NCBI GenBank assembly: GCA_024742495.1
Contig: JANSYJ010000009.1
Span: forward strand, 1 to 64,000
Length of the DNA: 64,000 nucleotides
Direction: 5' to 3'
Origin: Bacteroidota bacterium
Lineage (GTDB): Bacteria; Bacteroidota; Bacteroidia; Flavobacteriales; Schleiferiaceae
The notes beneath the pieces are model-generated. The model was not told the DNA's origin. It ran no database searches and was given only the letters and a program-made list of their open reading frames with translations. Below, in pieces: positions 9,032 through 21,239 of the stretch (position 1 is the stretch's first letter; every line of letters starts with the position of its first letter). A program made the translations under genes and the position numbers.

Positions 9032-10756
9032 TCACCAATCCACCGGCGCCTCCAAGGTCATGGCCTCGCCGCTAATTGGATGCTTAAAACTGATGCGCTC
9101 CGCATGCAAGTACAATCGATCTGCCAGGCGCCCGTATAAATCGTCGCCAAGGATAGCCAATGCCAAGCCCTCGCCGTGGGCAGCATGCACTCTTAATTGA
9201 TGAGTGCGACCAGTAATCGGATAAAAGTAAACTTTGGTTTTACCCTCCTTTCTTTCCAATACTTCCCATTTAGTCACCGCGGCTTTACCATATTCGTAGC
9301 ATACCAATTGGCGAGGACGATCATTCAAATCTACCCTTAAGGGTAAGTTTATTAAGCCTTGATCCTCCTCCAGGATTCCATCTAATATGGCCACATAGCG
9401 CTTAGAAATGCTGCGCACCTTAAACTGATATTGCAAAGCTTTATGGGCCTTGCGTGTTTTCGCCAGGAGCATTATACCCGAGGTTGACATGTCTAAGCGA
9501 TGGACGATTAATGGTCCAGTGGCCTTTGGATACTTAGCTTGCATTCGCTTAAAAACCGAATCCTCCACCCGCTTTCCTGGTACCGATAAAAACTCATTGG
9601 GCTTGTTGATGGCCAGCATATCATCATCCTCATAGACCACCTCAATATCGAGGGGCGCTTCATGTTGTTCTAACATTGGATTAGGTGCCACCTTTAGGCC
9701 TTGGAGCATATGCCCTAATATGGGCTCACATTTTCCGCGACAGGCCGGATAATACTCCTTATGCTTGCGCACCTCCATTTTTGGAGGCACACCCCACCAA
9801 AATTCGGCCATGCAAATGGGCTCAAGCTTATGCTGATAGGCGTAGTGCAAAAGTTTCGGTGCGGCACAATCGCCAGCACCAGCGGGAGGGTTTTCGTTTA
9901 TGCTATGCTGAAAGATGGCGAATAAAGAACGTTTCTCATAATGGGCATTCAAAAACTGGAATTGCTTAAAAATCTGTTTTTGCAGGGCATTAGACTTGTT
10001 TTTACGCCCTTCTCTTAAGGCCTGTATTTCATCATCATAAAGCTTAAAGTCCCGCTGAACCTCAGCCAGCTCCTCGGCCAGAGCCAATTTCAACTTTTTT
10101 AAACCATAATTCCGATGGGTGCTTTCCTTAGACAATGCCAGCTCTAAATCCTGGAATTCCGAGGCCGAAAGCTGATTCACAGCGGCTTCTTTTTTTTGTC
10201 GCCTTTCCTTCCGCGCTTCGCGAATCGATGCTTTTTCGGCCGCCAAACGTTCCGCCGCCTGTTCCTCCTGTTGCTCCAGTTTCGCTTTCAAGCGCTTATA
10301 TTCTTCAGAAGCTTCTAAAAACTCCAAACGCTCATTCATCTGCGAAAGCTCCTTTTCGCCCTTTCTATAAAACTCGCCCTCCACCAAGGTGTCGAAAACC
10401 GGAGGCACAAAAGGAGGCAGTATGCTATTCCCAGCTAAGCGTCCCGAAAAAGCGGTGAGATAAGCCAGGCGACCTTGACTATCCTTTACCACCAAAACGC
10501 CAAACATTTTCCCTTGCGGAGATTCTTTGTTTTGGGGATCCAAGCCAAAGTTATGCTGCCAATCGTTTTGAATAAGTAAATAGTCCTGAAGCTCCTTAGC
10601 CGCCAATTCCGCCAAGCGATGCGGACGGTAATAGAAGGGGAAGTCAAAGGCCTTTGGCGCTTCAATTTCCGAAATATCGTGACGAAAAGGGATGAGGTGT
10701 TCTTTCAAGGGGGTAAAGATAGGATGGCGCGATTTGACAATTCTTAAAAAGCTCAA
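9032..10756 (-). CDS. RluA-family pseudouridine synthase, long form with coiled-coil insertion
   Basis: IVHRLDMSTSGIMLLAK (catalytic HRLDxxTSG), KRYVAILDG, PITGRTHQLRVHAAH. Confidence 0.95.
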   Translation of the reverse strand: MSFLRIVKSRHPIFTPLKEHLIPFRHDISEIEAPKAFDFPFYYRPHRLAELAAKELQDYLLIQNDWQHNFGLDPQNKESPQGKMFGVLVVKDSQGRLAYLTAFSGRLAGNSILPPFVPPVFDTLVEGEFYRKGEKELSQMNERLEFLEASEEYKRLKAKLEQQEEQAAERLAAEKASIREARKERRQKKEAAVNQLSASEFQDLELALSKESTHRNYGLKKLKLALAEELAEVQRDFKLYDDEIQALREGRKNKSNALQKQIFKQFQFLNAHYEKRSLFAIFQHSINENPPAGAGDCAAPKLLHYAYQHKLEPICMAEFWWGVPPKMEVRKHKEYYPACRGKCEPILGHMLQGLKVAPNPMLEQHEAPLDIEVVYEDDDMLAINKPNEFLSVPGKRVEDSVFKRMQAKYPKATGPLIVHRLDMSTSGIMLLAKTRKAHKALQYQFKVRSISKRYVAILDGILEEDQGLINLPLRVDLNDRPRQLVCYEYGKAAVTKWEVLERKEGKTKVYFYPITGRTHQLRVHAAHGEGLALAILGDDLYGRLADRLYLHAERISFKHPISGEAMTLEAPVDW

Positions 10757-10829
10757 ATTTGAACTTGAATAAAATATAGAGGCAAGGAATTATACGTATA
10801 ATTACCTGCCCTCATGAGCCCCTAAACCA

Positions 10830-11339
10830 ATGACTAATAAGCCTGTTAATCTAGAAATGAGAAAAATGAACCGCATACTTCCGCAATTCACATTCCTACT
10901 TTTATTAAGCTCCTGCGTGCTTGATTCGGAAAAAGAGCCTTCCCTTTGGACCCAAGAGCAAATCACTATTCAAAATACCCTCAAGACCGCTTATGCTGAG
11001 GGTTTGCAAAATGAAGGGGACAGCCTTAAAATTGATGCTCATTTTCATCCCCAATTTACCATGATTGCTCGCAAGCCATCCGACAGCTTGCGCTTTGTAA
11101 AACTCAAAGGCTGGCGTGCGGCGAAAATTAAGGCCCGAGCGGAAGGTAAACTTCCTTTAGAGGGAGGGCATAAAGTCTCCATAAAATTTCAGTCGATAGA
11201 CATTGCCCAAGACGTGGCAGTAGCCAAAGTAGATTACTATGAAGGGGAGCGATTGAGCTATATCGACTTTATCTCCCTCTATAAAATAAAGGGGGAGTGG
11301 AAAATAGTCTCCAAGGTTTTTACTAAGATTGAAGAATAG
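10830..11339 (+). CDS. Lumazine-binding/NTF2-like lipoprotein
   Basis: Lipobox LLLSSC; VAVAKVDYYEG..FISLYKIKGEWKIVSKVF typical of NTF2-like fold. Confidence 0.7.
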   Translation: MTNKPVNLEMRKMNRILPQFTFLLLLSSCVLDSEKEPSLWTQEQITIQNTLKTAYAEGLQNEGDSLKIDAHFHPQFTMIARKPSDSLRFVKLKGWRAAKIKARAEGKLPLEGGHKVSIKFQSIDIAQDVAVAKVDYYEGERLSYIDFISLYKIKGEWKIVSKVFTKIEE

Positions 11340-18042: not shown

Positions 18043-19566
18043 TTAGGCCTTTAAATTCCGGATAATAGCTTCCACAAACTGATCGCTAGTAAATGGTTTT
18101 GGAATGACATCGCTAAAACCAATCGCATGAAAGCCACGAATGTCTTCTTTGGAACTATTGCCAGTTAAGGCCAAGATTGGCGTATGCGCGTTTGATTGCT
18201 CATAGGCCTCCTTCTGTTTTATCAGCGCATCGCCACTAAGATTGGGCATATTGATATCTAGTAAAACCAAATCGAAGGTCTCCTCTTGCATGGCTGTCAA
18301 GGCCTCAATTCCATCTTTTACCAAAGTAAAATTGGCCTTTTCTCGTTTTAAGATATGAGCTACAATTTCCCGATTCATGAAATTATCGTCGGCCGCTAAA
18401 ATGCGCTTGCCTTCAATCGATTCAATTTCCGCTGGCTCTTCAATTTGTTTTTCTGGCTGGCTTTGCGGTGCAATAGTGAAAGGAATCTCCAAGCTAAAAA
18501 CCGTTCCACGGCCTACTTCACTTTCTACTTTTATTTCGCCTTCCATCGCCGTAACCAAGCGCTTCACAATAGCCAGGCCCAAACCGGCACCTTTATGAAT
18601 GCGATTATCATCAAGGCTGTTTTGCTTGTATTCCTCAAAAACGTCCGCCGCCTGCTGCTTGGTCATTCCACGCCCGGTATCGCGCACTTCGAATTTTAAA
18701 ATAATCTGATTCGAATTTTGGGAAAGCACATCAATAGTGGTGCTTACCGATCCGCTAGGGGTAAATTTTATCGAATTATTGACCAGATTGGTTAGCACCT
18801 GGTACAGTCGCACATCATCCCCCAGGATAAAAGGAGGAATGGCATTGGAACAAGAAAAATCTAATTTGATATCGATATCACGGTGGCTGCTGCGGTAATT
18901 GTTCGCCATCTGATCCATAATGGTAGCCAGACTTATAGGCTCATTACTAAGCTCTAACTTCCCCGCTTCTACCCGTGATAGATCGAGAATATCCTCAACT
19001 ATTACTTTTAAATTTCGACCCGATACCGCGAGGTATTTAAGAAACTCCGCCACGCGATCGGATATCTCCTCTTTGGCAATAAGCTCGGTATAAGCCAAAA
19101 TTACGTTCAATGGGTTTCGCGCCTCATGGCTCATCATTGCTAGAAAGCGTGATTTTTGCTCATTGGCAATTTCCGCTTCCTTGCGCAGGCGCTCCAGCTC
19201 CTCGTTTTGCTTTTTTAGCTCCCGCTTTAGGAAAACCTGCTCATTGCGACTTTGGTTTACCTGTTCTAAGTACTTATAACCTTTAGTGCGGTTGTGGATT
19301 AAAACCAACAGGGAGTCCTTAGCTTGAAAAAGCTCCACATCAACATAGTAGTCCTCCTCATTAAGGAAAATTTGCATGCCCTCTAAAAGAATCGCTTCTC
19401 CCTCACTTAAAGAATCTAAGCTTCCCTCTAAAAAGGGGCAGAGTTTAAAAATCGTATCGCCTTTTTGAAAAGCATCCGCCAGAAAATTACCTGAAATGGT
19501 TTCTTGGATCTCGCCCGCTGGGCTTAGGTAAAATTCAATATAATATTGCTCAATTCTGCTGGCCAT
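18043..19566 (-). CDS. Hybrid sensor histidine kinase/response regulator with PAS-like N-terminus
   Basis: H-box MMSHEARNPLN, N-box NLVNNSIKFTPSG, G-box DTGRGM and GAGLGLAIVK, receiver LVLLDINMP..ALTGNSS..PKPF. Confidence 0.95.
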   Translation of the reverse strand: MASRIEQYYIEFYLSPAGEIQETISGNFLADAFQKGDTIFKLCPFLEGSLDSLSEGEAILLEGMQIFLNEEDYYVDVELFQAKDSLLVLIHNRTKGYKYLEQVNQSRNEQVFLKRELKKQNEELERLRKEAEIANEQKSRFLAMMSHEARNPLNVILAYTELIAKEEISDRVAEFLKYLAVSGRNLKVIVEDILDLSRVEAGKLELSNEPISLATIMDQMANNYRSSHRDIDIKLDFSCSNAIPPFILGDDVRLYQVLTNLVNNSIKFTPSGSVSTTIDVLSQNSNQIILKFEVRDTGRGMTKQQAADVFEEYKQNSLDDNRIHKGAGLGLAIVKRLVTAMEGEIKVESEVGRGTVFSLEIPFTIAPQSQPEKQIEEPAEIESIEGKRILAADDNFMNREIVAHILKREKANFTLVKDGIEALTAMQEETFDLVLLDINMPNLSGDALIKQKEAYEQSNAHTPILALTGNSSKEDIRGFHAIGFSDVIPKPFTSDQFVEAIIRNLKA

Positions 19567-19569
19567 TCC

Positions 19570-20058
19570 CTACTTATTTAAGGATTGCATGGCCAAACTC
19601 ATAAAGGCGTCCTCCACATTATCGTCTTCCTTAGCACTGGTCACTAAATCGATATTTAGGGGAATGGCCTTAAGCACAGACTCGACCTCTTCGCTAGTTA
19701 GTAAATCCTTTTTATTACCCACTACCACAAAATGTTCTAAGCCCGAAAGCGCCTTTACATTCTCCAACTGCGCTTCTAAATTTCTATAGGTTTCTTCCTC
19801 ACTGAGGTCAAAGACATACATGGCCGCATGGGCCCCTAAAAAATAAGCCTTGGGAACCTTCTCATCATCCTTGGTACCGGCTACATCCCAAATCAAAAGC
19901 TTAATCTCCTGCTCCTGAACTTGAATTAATTTGGTGCTCACCCGCACCCCAATGGTGCTGATATAGTCTTCGGAAAACTCATTCGAAACAAATCTTCGAA
20001 TTAGGGAGGTTTTACCTACCCCAAAGTTTCCAACTAGTAATACTTTCTTAGCAATCAT
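19570..20058 (-). CDS. Ras/Rab-like small GTPase
   Basis: G1 GNFGVGKTSL, G2 DYISTIGVRV, G3 WDVAGT, G4 GNKKDL, G5 TSAKE. Confidence 0.95.
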   Translation of the reverse strand: MIAKKVLLVGNFGVGKTSLIRRFVSNEFSEDYISTIGVRVSTKLIQVQEQEIKLLIWDVAGTKDDEKVPKAYFLGAHAAMYVFDLSEEETYRNLEAQLENVKALSGLEHFVVVGNKKDLLTSEEVESVLKAIPLNIDLVTSAKEDDNVEDAFMSLAMQSLNK

Positions 20059-20069
20059 CCCCCTCTAGA

Positions 20070-20885
20070 TCAATTGGCTTCTTCGATTAATAGCTCTTCA
20101 ATAAGCGCATTTAAACGCATTGGATCTTTCAAATACGTTCTATCCCTCAAAATCTTAGTGGCCAAAGTTCCAATATTTTCCGCTAATTCATCCTTAAACT
20201 CAGGAGAGATCACCCCCGAAGTTGCGGTGGCAACATATATGGTTTTAAAGTTCATGAGGGAAAGCTGGAAGGTTTCGAATTTTATATCCTCCAAATCCTG
20301 ACCTTCTTTAGCAAAGGCATCTTCAGCGAAAGCTTTAATGGCGGTTAACATCCCCGACACCATGTCTTTATCGGCAATATTACCTCTACTGAAATTTCCA
20401 ATTAATAAACCGGAATCCTTCTCAATTACAAATACCTCCTCAATTATCGGTTCAAAAACCTCCTTGAGTACATCTTCGGCATCGGTTCTTTTTCCTTTAA
20501 AGAAACGCTTAAGAATTTGCTTAGGCGAGAATTTATTGGTGATGGTGTCATTTATACTTTCGGTGAGCTTGGTAATCTCCGCGATTATAAATTTCTTCAC
20601 CAACTTACCCATGATTGGATAAAGGGCCTCAACCACTTCATCCTGGGATTCTTTAATTTGAGTTTTGATGGTTTTGGTAATCGTATCACCAAAATAAACC
20701 GGAAAGTTTGTACGTAAATCCTCAATTTTCGCATCAACAAGAGGGTCTACTTTCTGGCGAAATTTCTCCTGCTCGAGCACCTCATCTTGCAGCTGCTTCA
20801 GGTCTTCCCATTCTTCAGCTAAGAGCAGTTCTCGGAGCAGTTCAAATCGATCCTCCTTTTTCTTATCTCCGGTTGCTTCGGCCAT
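20070..20885 (-). CDS. Roadblock/longin-like regulatory protein, related to the N-terminal part of cyanobacterial OmpA-family proteins
   Basis: EEVFVIEKDSGLLIGNF..DKDMVSGMLTAIKAFAEDAF resembles roadblock-like modules; no OmpA C-terminal domain or signal peptide. Confidence 0.6.
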   Translation of the reverse strand: MAEATGDKKKEDRFELLRELLLAEEWEDLKQLQDEVLEQEKFRQKVDPLVDAKIEDLRTNFPVYFGDTITKTIKTQIKESQDEVVEALYPIMGKLVKKFIIAEITKLTESINDTITNKFSPKQILKRFFKGKRTDAEDVLKEVFEPIIEEVFVIEKDSGLLIGNFSRGNIADKDMVSGMLTAIKAFAEDAFAKEGQDLEDIKFETFQLSLMNFKTIYVATATSGVISPEFKDELAENIGTLATKILRDRTYLKDPMRLNALIEELLIEEAN

Positions 20886-21239
20886 CTACGCTTGCAACTT
20901 CAGGGCTATTTGCTCTAATGCTTCACCAAGTTTTCTACGGTCGGCCTTTTCGTCGAAAAGCTCTTCAATACTTTTATTAAGCTCGGTGCTTAGATCTTGT
21001 ATCCTTTGATCCATAGCCCGCTCTAAATCAGCCATATTGCTTTCTAAAGTAGCTACCGCCTCTTCAAGCTTTCGCTGATTGTCTTCGTTTGATTCCTTAA
21101 TCTTGGCGTTTACCTCAGCAAATTCGCTGTTGTATTGAATGATATTCTCACCAAATATGAGATCTCTTACCGCCGCAATTCTGCTTTCAGGGTTTGGGCT
21201 TTCTGCAGATGCCTTTTTCTCTTCGTTCTTTTTCGACAT
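20886..21239 (-). CDS. Small coiled-coil protein
   Basis: Heptad-like charged sequence; abuts the next gene with no spacer. Confidence 0.75.
   Translation of the reverse strand: MSKKNEEKKASAESPNPESRIAAVRDLIFGENIIQYNSEFAEVNAKIKESNEDNQRKLEEAVATLESNMADLERAMDQRIQDLSTELNKSIEELFDEKADRRKLGEALEQIALKLQA

What the first reader, a model, noticed from the sequence alone, without database searches (positions are those of the whole stretch)
18043..21239. Four-gene Ras-like GTPase signalling operon (coiled coil, roadblock-like, small GTPase, hybrid histidine kinase)
Seen directly: four same-strand genes with spacers of 0, 11 and 3 nt. The GTPase has all five G-motifs in Rab-like form. The gene before it encodes a protein with a roadblock/longin-like region (EVFVIEKDSGLLIGNF..MVSGMLTAIKAF), similar to the cytoplasmic N-terminal part of cyanobacterial OmpA-family proteins but without the OmpA domain. 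Known precedent: small GTPase plus roadblock protein plus response regulator (MglA/MglB/RomR) sets polarity in Myxococcus. Inference: this is a compact Bacteroidota GTPase switch coupled to phosphorelay, a good candidate for an uncharacterised signalling or polarity system.
Basis: partly seen in the sequence, partly recalled or inferred. Interest (0 to 1): 0.82.

Follow-up and report, generated by a model that had tools for sequence, protein, structure and literature searches.

The report
Rab-like GTPase–longin–kinase signalling operon
Four neighbouring genes in a Bacteroidota genome form a conserved signalling cassette (a Rab-like molecular switch, its probable longin-fold partner, a coiled-coil protein and a sensor kinase) of a kind catalogued in 2014 but, as far as found, never tested, and the likely identity of its two unknown domains now makes it testable.

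Summary
They form a real unit. The same four genes, and none of the window's flanking genes, recur in Polaribacter, Flavicella and Roseivirga.

The kind is not new. It is the "Group 1 Rup" system of Wuichet & Søgaard-Andersen 2014: Rup GTPase, coiled-coil protein, unknown domain often followed by a membrane helix and OmpA, and a kinase or c-di-GMP output. No experiment on it was found.

What is added here:
(a) The unknown domain of the 271-aa protein has a predicted longin/roadblock fold (all top-50 PDB matches, but a low-confidence model).
(b) The kinase's N-terminal region is a PAS domain (pLDDT 90). Its exit helix carries a Q-x-R-N motif, while the GTPase lacks the catalytic G3 glutamine (Thr62).
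(c) The soluble, OmpA-less form is confined, in my samples, to the window's class.
(d) One family encodes the PAS domain alone as fourth gene.

The MglA/MglB polarity reading is not supported: the GTPase is not MglA-like and the genome has no Roadblock Pfam match. Proposed mechanism: the longin/coiled-coil scaffold sets the GTPase state; the GTPase engages PAS to gate the kinase.

The parts
20886..21239 (-). 117-aa soluble coiled-coil protein (P0004), first gene of the operon
   Evidence: homologue adjacent in 28 of 29 related loci; no real Pfam/NCBIfam family
21129..21182 (-). N-terminal signature of P0004, residues 20-37 (RIAAVRDLIFGEN..QY), shared with the Nostoc and Mesorhizobium homologues
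20892..20945 (-). C-terminal signature of P0004, residues 99-116 (ADRRKLGEALEQIALKLQ)
20070..20885 (-). 271-aa protein (P0003): N-terminal helical region plus C-terminal longin/roadblock-fold domain, soluble (no TM, no OmpA)
   Evidence: hydropathy
20451..20885 (-). Helical N-terminal region of P0003 (residues 1-145), with LRELLL motif and LYPIMGKLVKKFI motif
20076..20447 (-). Predicted longin/roadblock-fold domain of P0003 (residues 147-270; beta-beta-alpha-beta-beta-beta-alpha-alpha), most conserved helix DMVSGMLTAIKAF
   Evidence: AF2 (mean pLDDT 56.8), Foldseek, weak Pfam longin matches in homologues
19570..20058 (-). 162-aa Rab-like small GTPase (P0002), Group 1 Rup type
20008..20031 (-). 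G1/P-loop GNFGVGKT (residues 10-17)
   Evidence: Sequence
19873..19887 (-). G3 motif D58-V-A-G-T62: Thr in place of the catalytic Gln
   Evidence: Sequence; comparison (Gln in only 2 of 43)
18043..19566 (-). 507-aa soluble hybrid histidine kinase (P0001): PAS - helix - HisKA - HATPase_c - receiver
19288..19566 (-). N-terminal PAS domain of P0001 (residues 1-93)
   Evidence: AF2 pLDDT 90.1; 49 of the top 50 PDB matches are PAS or PAS-bearing sensor proteins
19186..19287 (-). C-terminal helix of the PAS module (residues 94-127) with Q105-x-R107-N108
   Evidence: Invariant in alignment A2; wide set
18961..19158 (-). HisKA with phospho-acceptor His147 (residues 137-202)
18475..18822 (-). HATPase_c (residues 249-364)
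18064..18402 (-). Receiver domain (residues 389-501)

Best explanation
A soluble member of the Group 1 Rup kind of bacterial GTPase signalling cassettes. Shown: four conserved co-linear genes; a Rab-like GTPase lacking the G3 Gln; a kinase with HisKA, HATPase and receiver, whose N-terminal module has an invariant Q-x-R-N motif. Predicted with high confidence: that module is a PAS domain. Predicted with lower confidence: the 271-aa partner carries a longin/roadblock-fold domain. Inferred mechanism: the coiled-coil protein and the longin protein form the scaffold that binds the GTPase and sets its nucleotide state. The GTP-bound GTPase docks on the kinase's PAS module and gates autophosphorylation. 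The PAS-helix glutamine may complete the GTPase's missing catalytic residue in trans, so that the effector also ends its own signal. In OmpA-fused relatives the same scaffold would read cell-wall state; here, without membrane part or OmpA, it reads a cytoplasmic cue. Membership in the kind about 0.95; longin/roadblock fold about 0.85; direction GTPase to kinase about 0.55; in-trans Gln about 0.3.
For: Operon conservation in 29 loci, with only these four genes shared. Match to the published Rup Group 1 gene set, G3 change and output-domain Gln. Longin/roadblock fold with weak but in-register Fuz/Intu-longin Pfam matches in homologues. PAS fold. The PAS module occurs alone as the fourth gene in four genomes (L050, L053, L054; L055), which argues that PAS, not the kinase, is what the GTPase module needs. 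Outputs vary behind the same PAS-type N-terminus: hybrid kinase, kinase, adenylate cyclase. TM+OmpA fusions in L056, L057, L061, L062.
Against: No interaction or activity was tested. The longin model is low-confidence (mean pLDDT 56.8, pTM 0.42, central helix below 50). Single-sequence longin Pfam matches are below cut-off and at genome-wide noise level. Q105 is shifted by one position in four homologues, and two homologous GTPases have kept the G3 Gln. In other Bacteroidota classes the coiled-coil/longin pair often has no GTPase within about 5 kb, so the pair may have a GTPase-independent role.
Confidence: 0.55

Rival explanations
1. An MglA/MglB/RomR-type polarity module: P0003 is an MglB-like GAP and the module sets front-rear polarity for gliding.
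For: P0003's model also matches M. xanthus MglB structures (6hjm, E 1.5e-3). The genome encodes GldL.
Against: P0002 is Rab-like with an intact G3 Asp and its best PDB matches are Rabs. No Robl_LC7 Pfam match in the genome. Patchy distribution: 12 of 388 genomes of the class have a copy. No invariant Arg, hence no obvious Arg-finger candidate, in P0003. No RomR in the operon.
Confidence: 0.07
2. Reversed direction, as proposed for conservons: the PAS-kinase is the input, and phosphorylation or a PAS ligand controls the GTPase through the longin scaffold; the GTPase is the output.
For: The conservon precedent (PMC4316618; PMC13343842 abstract). No dedicated response regulator in the operon; PAS domains are commonly sensors.
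Against: The kinase has its own receiver, as an outgoing phosphorelay would. The kinase part is replaceable by a cyclase or absent altogether, which fits an interchangeable output better than an input.
Confidence: 0.23
3. The coiled-coil/longin pair is a structural or spatial scaffold with its own role (envelope anchoring, assembly), and GTPase and kinase are optional recruits.
For: Orphan pairs without a nearby GTPase: own genome G000:C30 (L048), L059, and about half of the loci in other classes. Variable coiled-coil length (102-385 aa) between conserved end motifs.
Against: In the window's own subfamily GTPase and kinase are always there.
Confidence: 0.15

Closest known systems
Group 1 Rup systems (Wuichet & Søgaard-Andersen 2014, PMC4316618)
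   Same: GTPase with Ras-like G motifs but no G3 Gln; adjacent coiled-coil gene; adjacent unknown-domain gene; output kinase or second-messenger enzyme with a conserved Gln in its N-terminal region
   Different: Here the unknown-domain protein is soluble, without TM and OmpA; the unknown domain is assigned longin/roadblock fold and the output N-terminus PAS, neither stated in the parts of that paper read here
Actinobacterial conservons (CvnA-D)
   Same: Four-gene operon of kinase, longin/roadblock-fold protein, unknown protein and small GTPase
   Different: CvnB is a true MglB/Roadblock homologue, CvnD belongs to the MglA family, CvnA is a membrane kinase; here the GTPase is Rab-like, the fold is longin-leaning, the kinase is soluble and hybrid
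MglA/MglB/RomR of Myxococcus
   Same: Small GTPase plus longin/roadblock-fold partner plus receiver-containing protein
   Different: Different GTPase family; no MglB sequence family; no RomR; no polarity evidence
Eukaryotic tri-longin RabGEFs (Mon1-Ccz1, Fuzzy-Inturned) with Rab7/Rab23
   Same: A longin-fold partner for a Rab-type GTPase; weak Pfam matches of homologues to Fuz_longin_1 and Intu_longin_1
   Different: One predicted longin domain instead of three; bacterial; GEF activity untested; sequence matches below cut-off

Membership tests
Group 1 Rup system | Small GTPase with eukaryote-like G1-G5 but no G3 Gln | tested here: met
   Thr62 in WDVAGTKD; other motifs Ras-like; published definition
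Group 1 Rup system | Adjacent coiled-coil cytoplasmic protein gene | tested here: met
   P0004, same order in 28 of 29 loci; coiled coil judged from its sequence, no dedicated predictor run
Group 1 Rup system | Adjacent conserved domain of unknown function, often (not always) followed by TM and OmpA | tested here: met
   P0003 lacks TM/OmpA itself; homologues L056/L057/L061/L062 carry them
Group 1 Rup system | Fourth gene is a signalling output with an invariant Gln in its N-terminal region | tested here: met
   Hybrid kinase; Q105 invariant in 29 aligned outputs, 37 of 41 in the wide set
Group 1 Rup system | Position of the GTPase in the published Rup tree | not tested
   No Rup reference sequences were at hand under that name
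MglA family | Thr in place of the G3 Asp; encoded with an MglB homologue | tested here: not met
   D58 intact; no Robl_LC7 Pfam hit in the genome
Roadblock/LC7 (PF03259) | Pfam match above cut-off | tested here: not met
   P0003 no match; own genome none
Longin/roadblock superfamily (fold) | beta2-alpha-beta3-alpha core, with an extra C-terminal helix for longin | tested here: met
   Model topology and all top-50 PDB matches, longins first; model confidence low
Longin Pfam families (Fuz_longin_1, Intu_longin_1) | Match above gathering cut-off | tested here: not met
   Best 19.5 bits against 26.1 in homologue L049; none in P0003 itself
PAS domain (N-terminus of P0001) | PAS fold | tested here: met
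   pLDDT 90.1; PDB matches PAS or PAS-bearing sensors; no Pfam match by sequence
Conservon | CvnB of the MglB family and CvnD of the MglA family | tested here: not met
   works like one at most
Tri-longin RabGEF | Heterodimer of three-longin proteins with GEF activity | tested here: not met
   One predicted longin domain in P0003; activity not testable here

The most novel reading that the evidence does not exclude
The Rup1 cassette is a bacterial counterpart of the eukaryotic pair 'Rab plus longin-domain exchange factor', and its signalling output is at the same time the GTPase-activating protein: the Gln (and Arg) on the PAS exit helix complete the GTPase active site in trans, so that switching the output on also sets the timer for switching it off.
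Probability: 0.2. Interest if true: 0.88.

Novelty: new member of a known kind. Interest (0 to 1): 0.58.

Why it matters
Group 1 Rup GTPases have been proposed as the prokaryotic group nearest to Rab/Ran/Ras/Rho (PMC4316618), but none has been studied experimentally as far as I found, and the partners were of unknown fold. If the partner is a longin-fold protein, the pairing of a Rab-like switch with a longin platform exists in bacteria as one operon, including in cultivated Polaribacter. This makes two open questions directly testable: who supplies the missing catalytic glutamine, and how old the Rab-longin partnership is. The soluble form should be easier to purify and crystallise than the OmpA-fused relatives.

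Tried and rejected
Pfam/NCBIfam of P0003 and P0004: no usable family. Profile of 23 P0003 homologues against PDB sequences: nothing significant; AP-4 sigma, a longin, third at E 0.22. Unbiased genome-wide scan with Fuz_longin_1 over 388 genomes: about 100 noise-level matches, of which two fall on P0003-family genes (G179, G329); by my rough estimate about 0.001 would be expected by chance (about 14 family genes among about 1.4 million), but the two are homologous and count as about one observation. MglB/Roadblock and GGDEF in the own genome: none. Recent horizontal transfer from Polaribacter: P0003 identity is as high as between Flavicella and Polaribacter although rpoB is 10 points lower, but in the P0003+P0002 tree the window branches outside the Polaribacter group with weak support (56), so transfer is not shown. 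Co-folding of partners: not attempted; the tool returns neither coordinates nor inter-chain confidence, so a read-through pseudo-fusion could not have been judged.
Full report
WHAT IS THERE. From 5' to 3' they encode a 117-aa charged helical protein (P0004), a 271-aa protein (P0003), a 162-aa small GTPase (P0002) and a 507-aa hybrid histidine kinase (P0001: HisKA, HATPase_c, receiver). None has a transmembrane-like stretch by hydropathy. P0002 matches Pfam Ras at E 1.7e-34 and Rab-1/Rab-23/Sec4 structures at about 1e-28 to 1e-26. It is the only strong Ras-family match in the genome; three other matches are weak.

IT IS A REAL UNIT. A scan of genome contigs with P0003 gave 29 loci at 40-74% identity, mostly Polaribacter, also Flavicella, Roseivirga, Fulvivirga and others. 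All 29 have the GTPase directly after P0003, 28 the kinase (the 29th contig ends before it), and 28 the coiled-coil gene before it, missing only in L030. Clustering of the surrounding ORFs shows that only these four genes are shared from the Polaribacter group to Roseivirga, and no window flanking gene is shared with any locus. The unit is therefore four genes long. Distribution is patchy: 12 of 388 genomes of the class (10 of 194 genera) and 16 of 396 of a phylum sample, two of them marginal.

WHAT IS ALREADY KNOWN. Wuichet and Søgaard-Andersen 2014 (PMC4316618) described the Group 1 Rup GTPases: Ras-like G motifs without the G3 glutamine, in a neighbourhood of three further genes. These are a coiled-coil protein, a protein with a domain of unknown function often followed by a membrane helix and OmpA, and a signalling output (histidine kinase or c-di-GMP enzyme) whose N-terminal region has an invariant glutamine. 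They compared it with the actinobacterial conservon and stated that no Rup protein had been characterised experimentally. I found no later experimental work in the held library, which lacks most subscription journals. The finding meets each of these features (see membership test), so it is a member of this kind. It is not MglA/MglB: P0002 keeps the G3 Asp that MglA replaces, and the genome has no Robl_LC7 match.

THE UNKNOWN DOMAIN OF P0003. AlphaFold2 with 24 sequences gives a model of low overall confidence (mean pLDDT 56.8, pTM 0.42), but the C-terminal half has the element order beta-beta-alpha-beta-beta-beta-alpha-alpha. Foldseek against the PDB returned, in all top 50 places, proteins of one superfamily or chains that contain it: CopZ1, AP-2/AP-1/AP-3 sigma, Sec22b, Ragulator subunits, Rag GTPases with their C-terminal roadblock domains, Mon1-Ccz1, Fuzzy-Inturned, Ykt6, MglB, axonemal and dynein roadblock chains (E 2e-4 to 3e-3). 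Single longin domains (AP sigma, Sec22b) fit best by target-normalised TM (about 0.6), MglB about 0.47. The extra C-terminal helix is the longin hallmark relative to roadblock (PMC10933270), although a short helix also precedes the first strand. Independently, three homologues match Pfam Fuz_longin_1 and two Intu_longin_1 over the same part of the domain in the same register, below the curated cut-offs (best E 0.0012, 19.5 against 26.1 bits). A genome-wide scan shows that such scores are noise level taken singly, though two of about 100 matches fall on this family. As a check on the method, the same pipeline on the kinase's N-terminus returned PAS, not longin. I take longin/roadblock fold as likely (about 0.85) and longin rather than roadblock as more likely than not.

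THE KINASE N-TERMINUS. Residues 1-128 of P0001 match no Pfam family but are predicted at pLDDT 90.1, and 49 of the top 50 PDB matches are PAS domains or PAS-bearing sensor proteins (best E 5.7e-4). The helix leaving the PAS core (94-127) carries Q105-x-R107-N108, invariant in 29 outputs. In a wider set that includes Nostoc and Mesorhizobium, Gln is at that position in 37 of 41 and one place earlier in the other four; Asn is in 39 of 41. Among 43 GTPases the G3 Gln is replaced by Thr, Glu, Ser, Val, Lys or Arg in 41. In one family of the same class (L050, L053, L054, L055) the fourth gene encodes this PAS-type domain alone, with no kinase. In Mesorhizobium the same kind of N-terminus precedes an adenylate/guanylate cyclase domain, in Nostoc a multi-domain hybrid kinase. 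What the GTPase module needs is therefore probably the PAS module; the catalytic output is exchangeable.

SOLUBLE AGAINST OmpA-FUSED. In the window's class the P0003 homologue is a soluble protein in most loci, with OmpA-bearing exceptions L056 and L057 (in L056 the OmpA match is below cut-off). In the other Bacteroidota classes sampled, all confident homologues sit in frames of 598-738 aa, and in Nostoc and Mesorhizobium TM and OmpA (with BON in Nostoc) follow the longin part. The soluble form is thus a local variant that has lost, or never gained, the cell-wall-facing half.

THE COILED-COIL PROTEIN. P0004 homologues range from 102 to 385 aa but share an N-terminal signature ([IV]-R-D-[LI]-[LI]-[FL]-G...Y...F) across phyla and, less strictly, a C-terminal one (D-R-x-x-L-x-x-x-L). 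The N-terminus of P0003 has a similar LRELLL motif, and one P0004 homologue is weakly hit by the P0003 profile, so the two may share an assembly element. The pair also occurs without a nearby GTPase: in the window's own genome (G000:C30:230638-232642; L048), in L059, and in about half the loci of other classes.

HOW IT PROBABLY WORKS (inference). P0003 and P0004 form the scaffold; the longin domain offers the GTPase-binding platform, as longin and roadblock dimers do for small GTPases from bacteria to eukaryotes (PMC10933270). The scaffold sets the nucleotide state of P0002 in response to a cytoplasmic cue. P0002-GTP engages the PAS module and gates the kinase, whose own receiver passes the phosphate on. 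The PAS-helix Gln is a candidate for the missing catalytic residue, an idea the 2014 authors raised for the output's conserved Gln; the PAS assignment now gives it a structural frame. The direction kinase-to-GTPase, as in conservons, is the main rival.

VERDICT. The system is a known but untested kind. The fold assignments and the soluble form are the contribution.

Noticed in passing
G000:C30:230638-232642 (L048:8638-10642): The same genome has a second, diverged P0003-like gene (27% identity) directly after a 385-aa P0004-like coiled-coil gene, with no GTPase or kinase nearby: an orphan scaffold pair.
   Followed up: partly
L050:8180-8584, L053:8535-8954, L054:10292-10801, L055 about 10660-11065: In one family of the class the fourth gene is the bare PAS-type domain with its Q-R-N helix motif, without any output enzyme; the coiled-coil gene is not adjacent there.
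   Followed up: partly
L005-L033 and window:18043-21239: Within Polaribacter the operon diverges far faster than rpoB (P0003 73% against rpoB 95% for L005/L010), and Flavicella groups inside Polaribacter in the operon tree: fast evolution or exchange.
   Followed up: partly
window:21646-22362 (+): The divergent neighbour encodes a protein matching Pfam TseH-like (PF25218, E 2e-27); not shared with other loci of the cassette.
   Followed up: no
window:13256-14668 (-): A 470-aa protein made of WG repeats (PF14903, nine matched stretches).
   Followed up: no
L061:4488-10506, L062:4942-10259 and L063: The same cassette with BON/OmpA-fused longin protein on a Nostoc megaplasmid and with a cyclase output on a Mesorhizobium plasmid; the Mesorhizobium and Rhizobium versions have about four near-identical internal repeats between membrane helix and OmpA.
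   Followed up: partly
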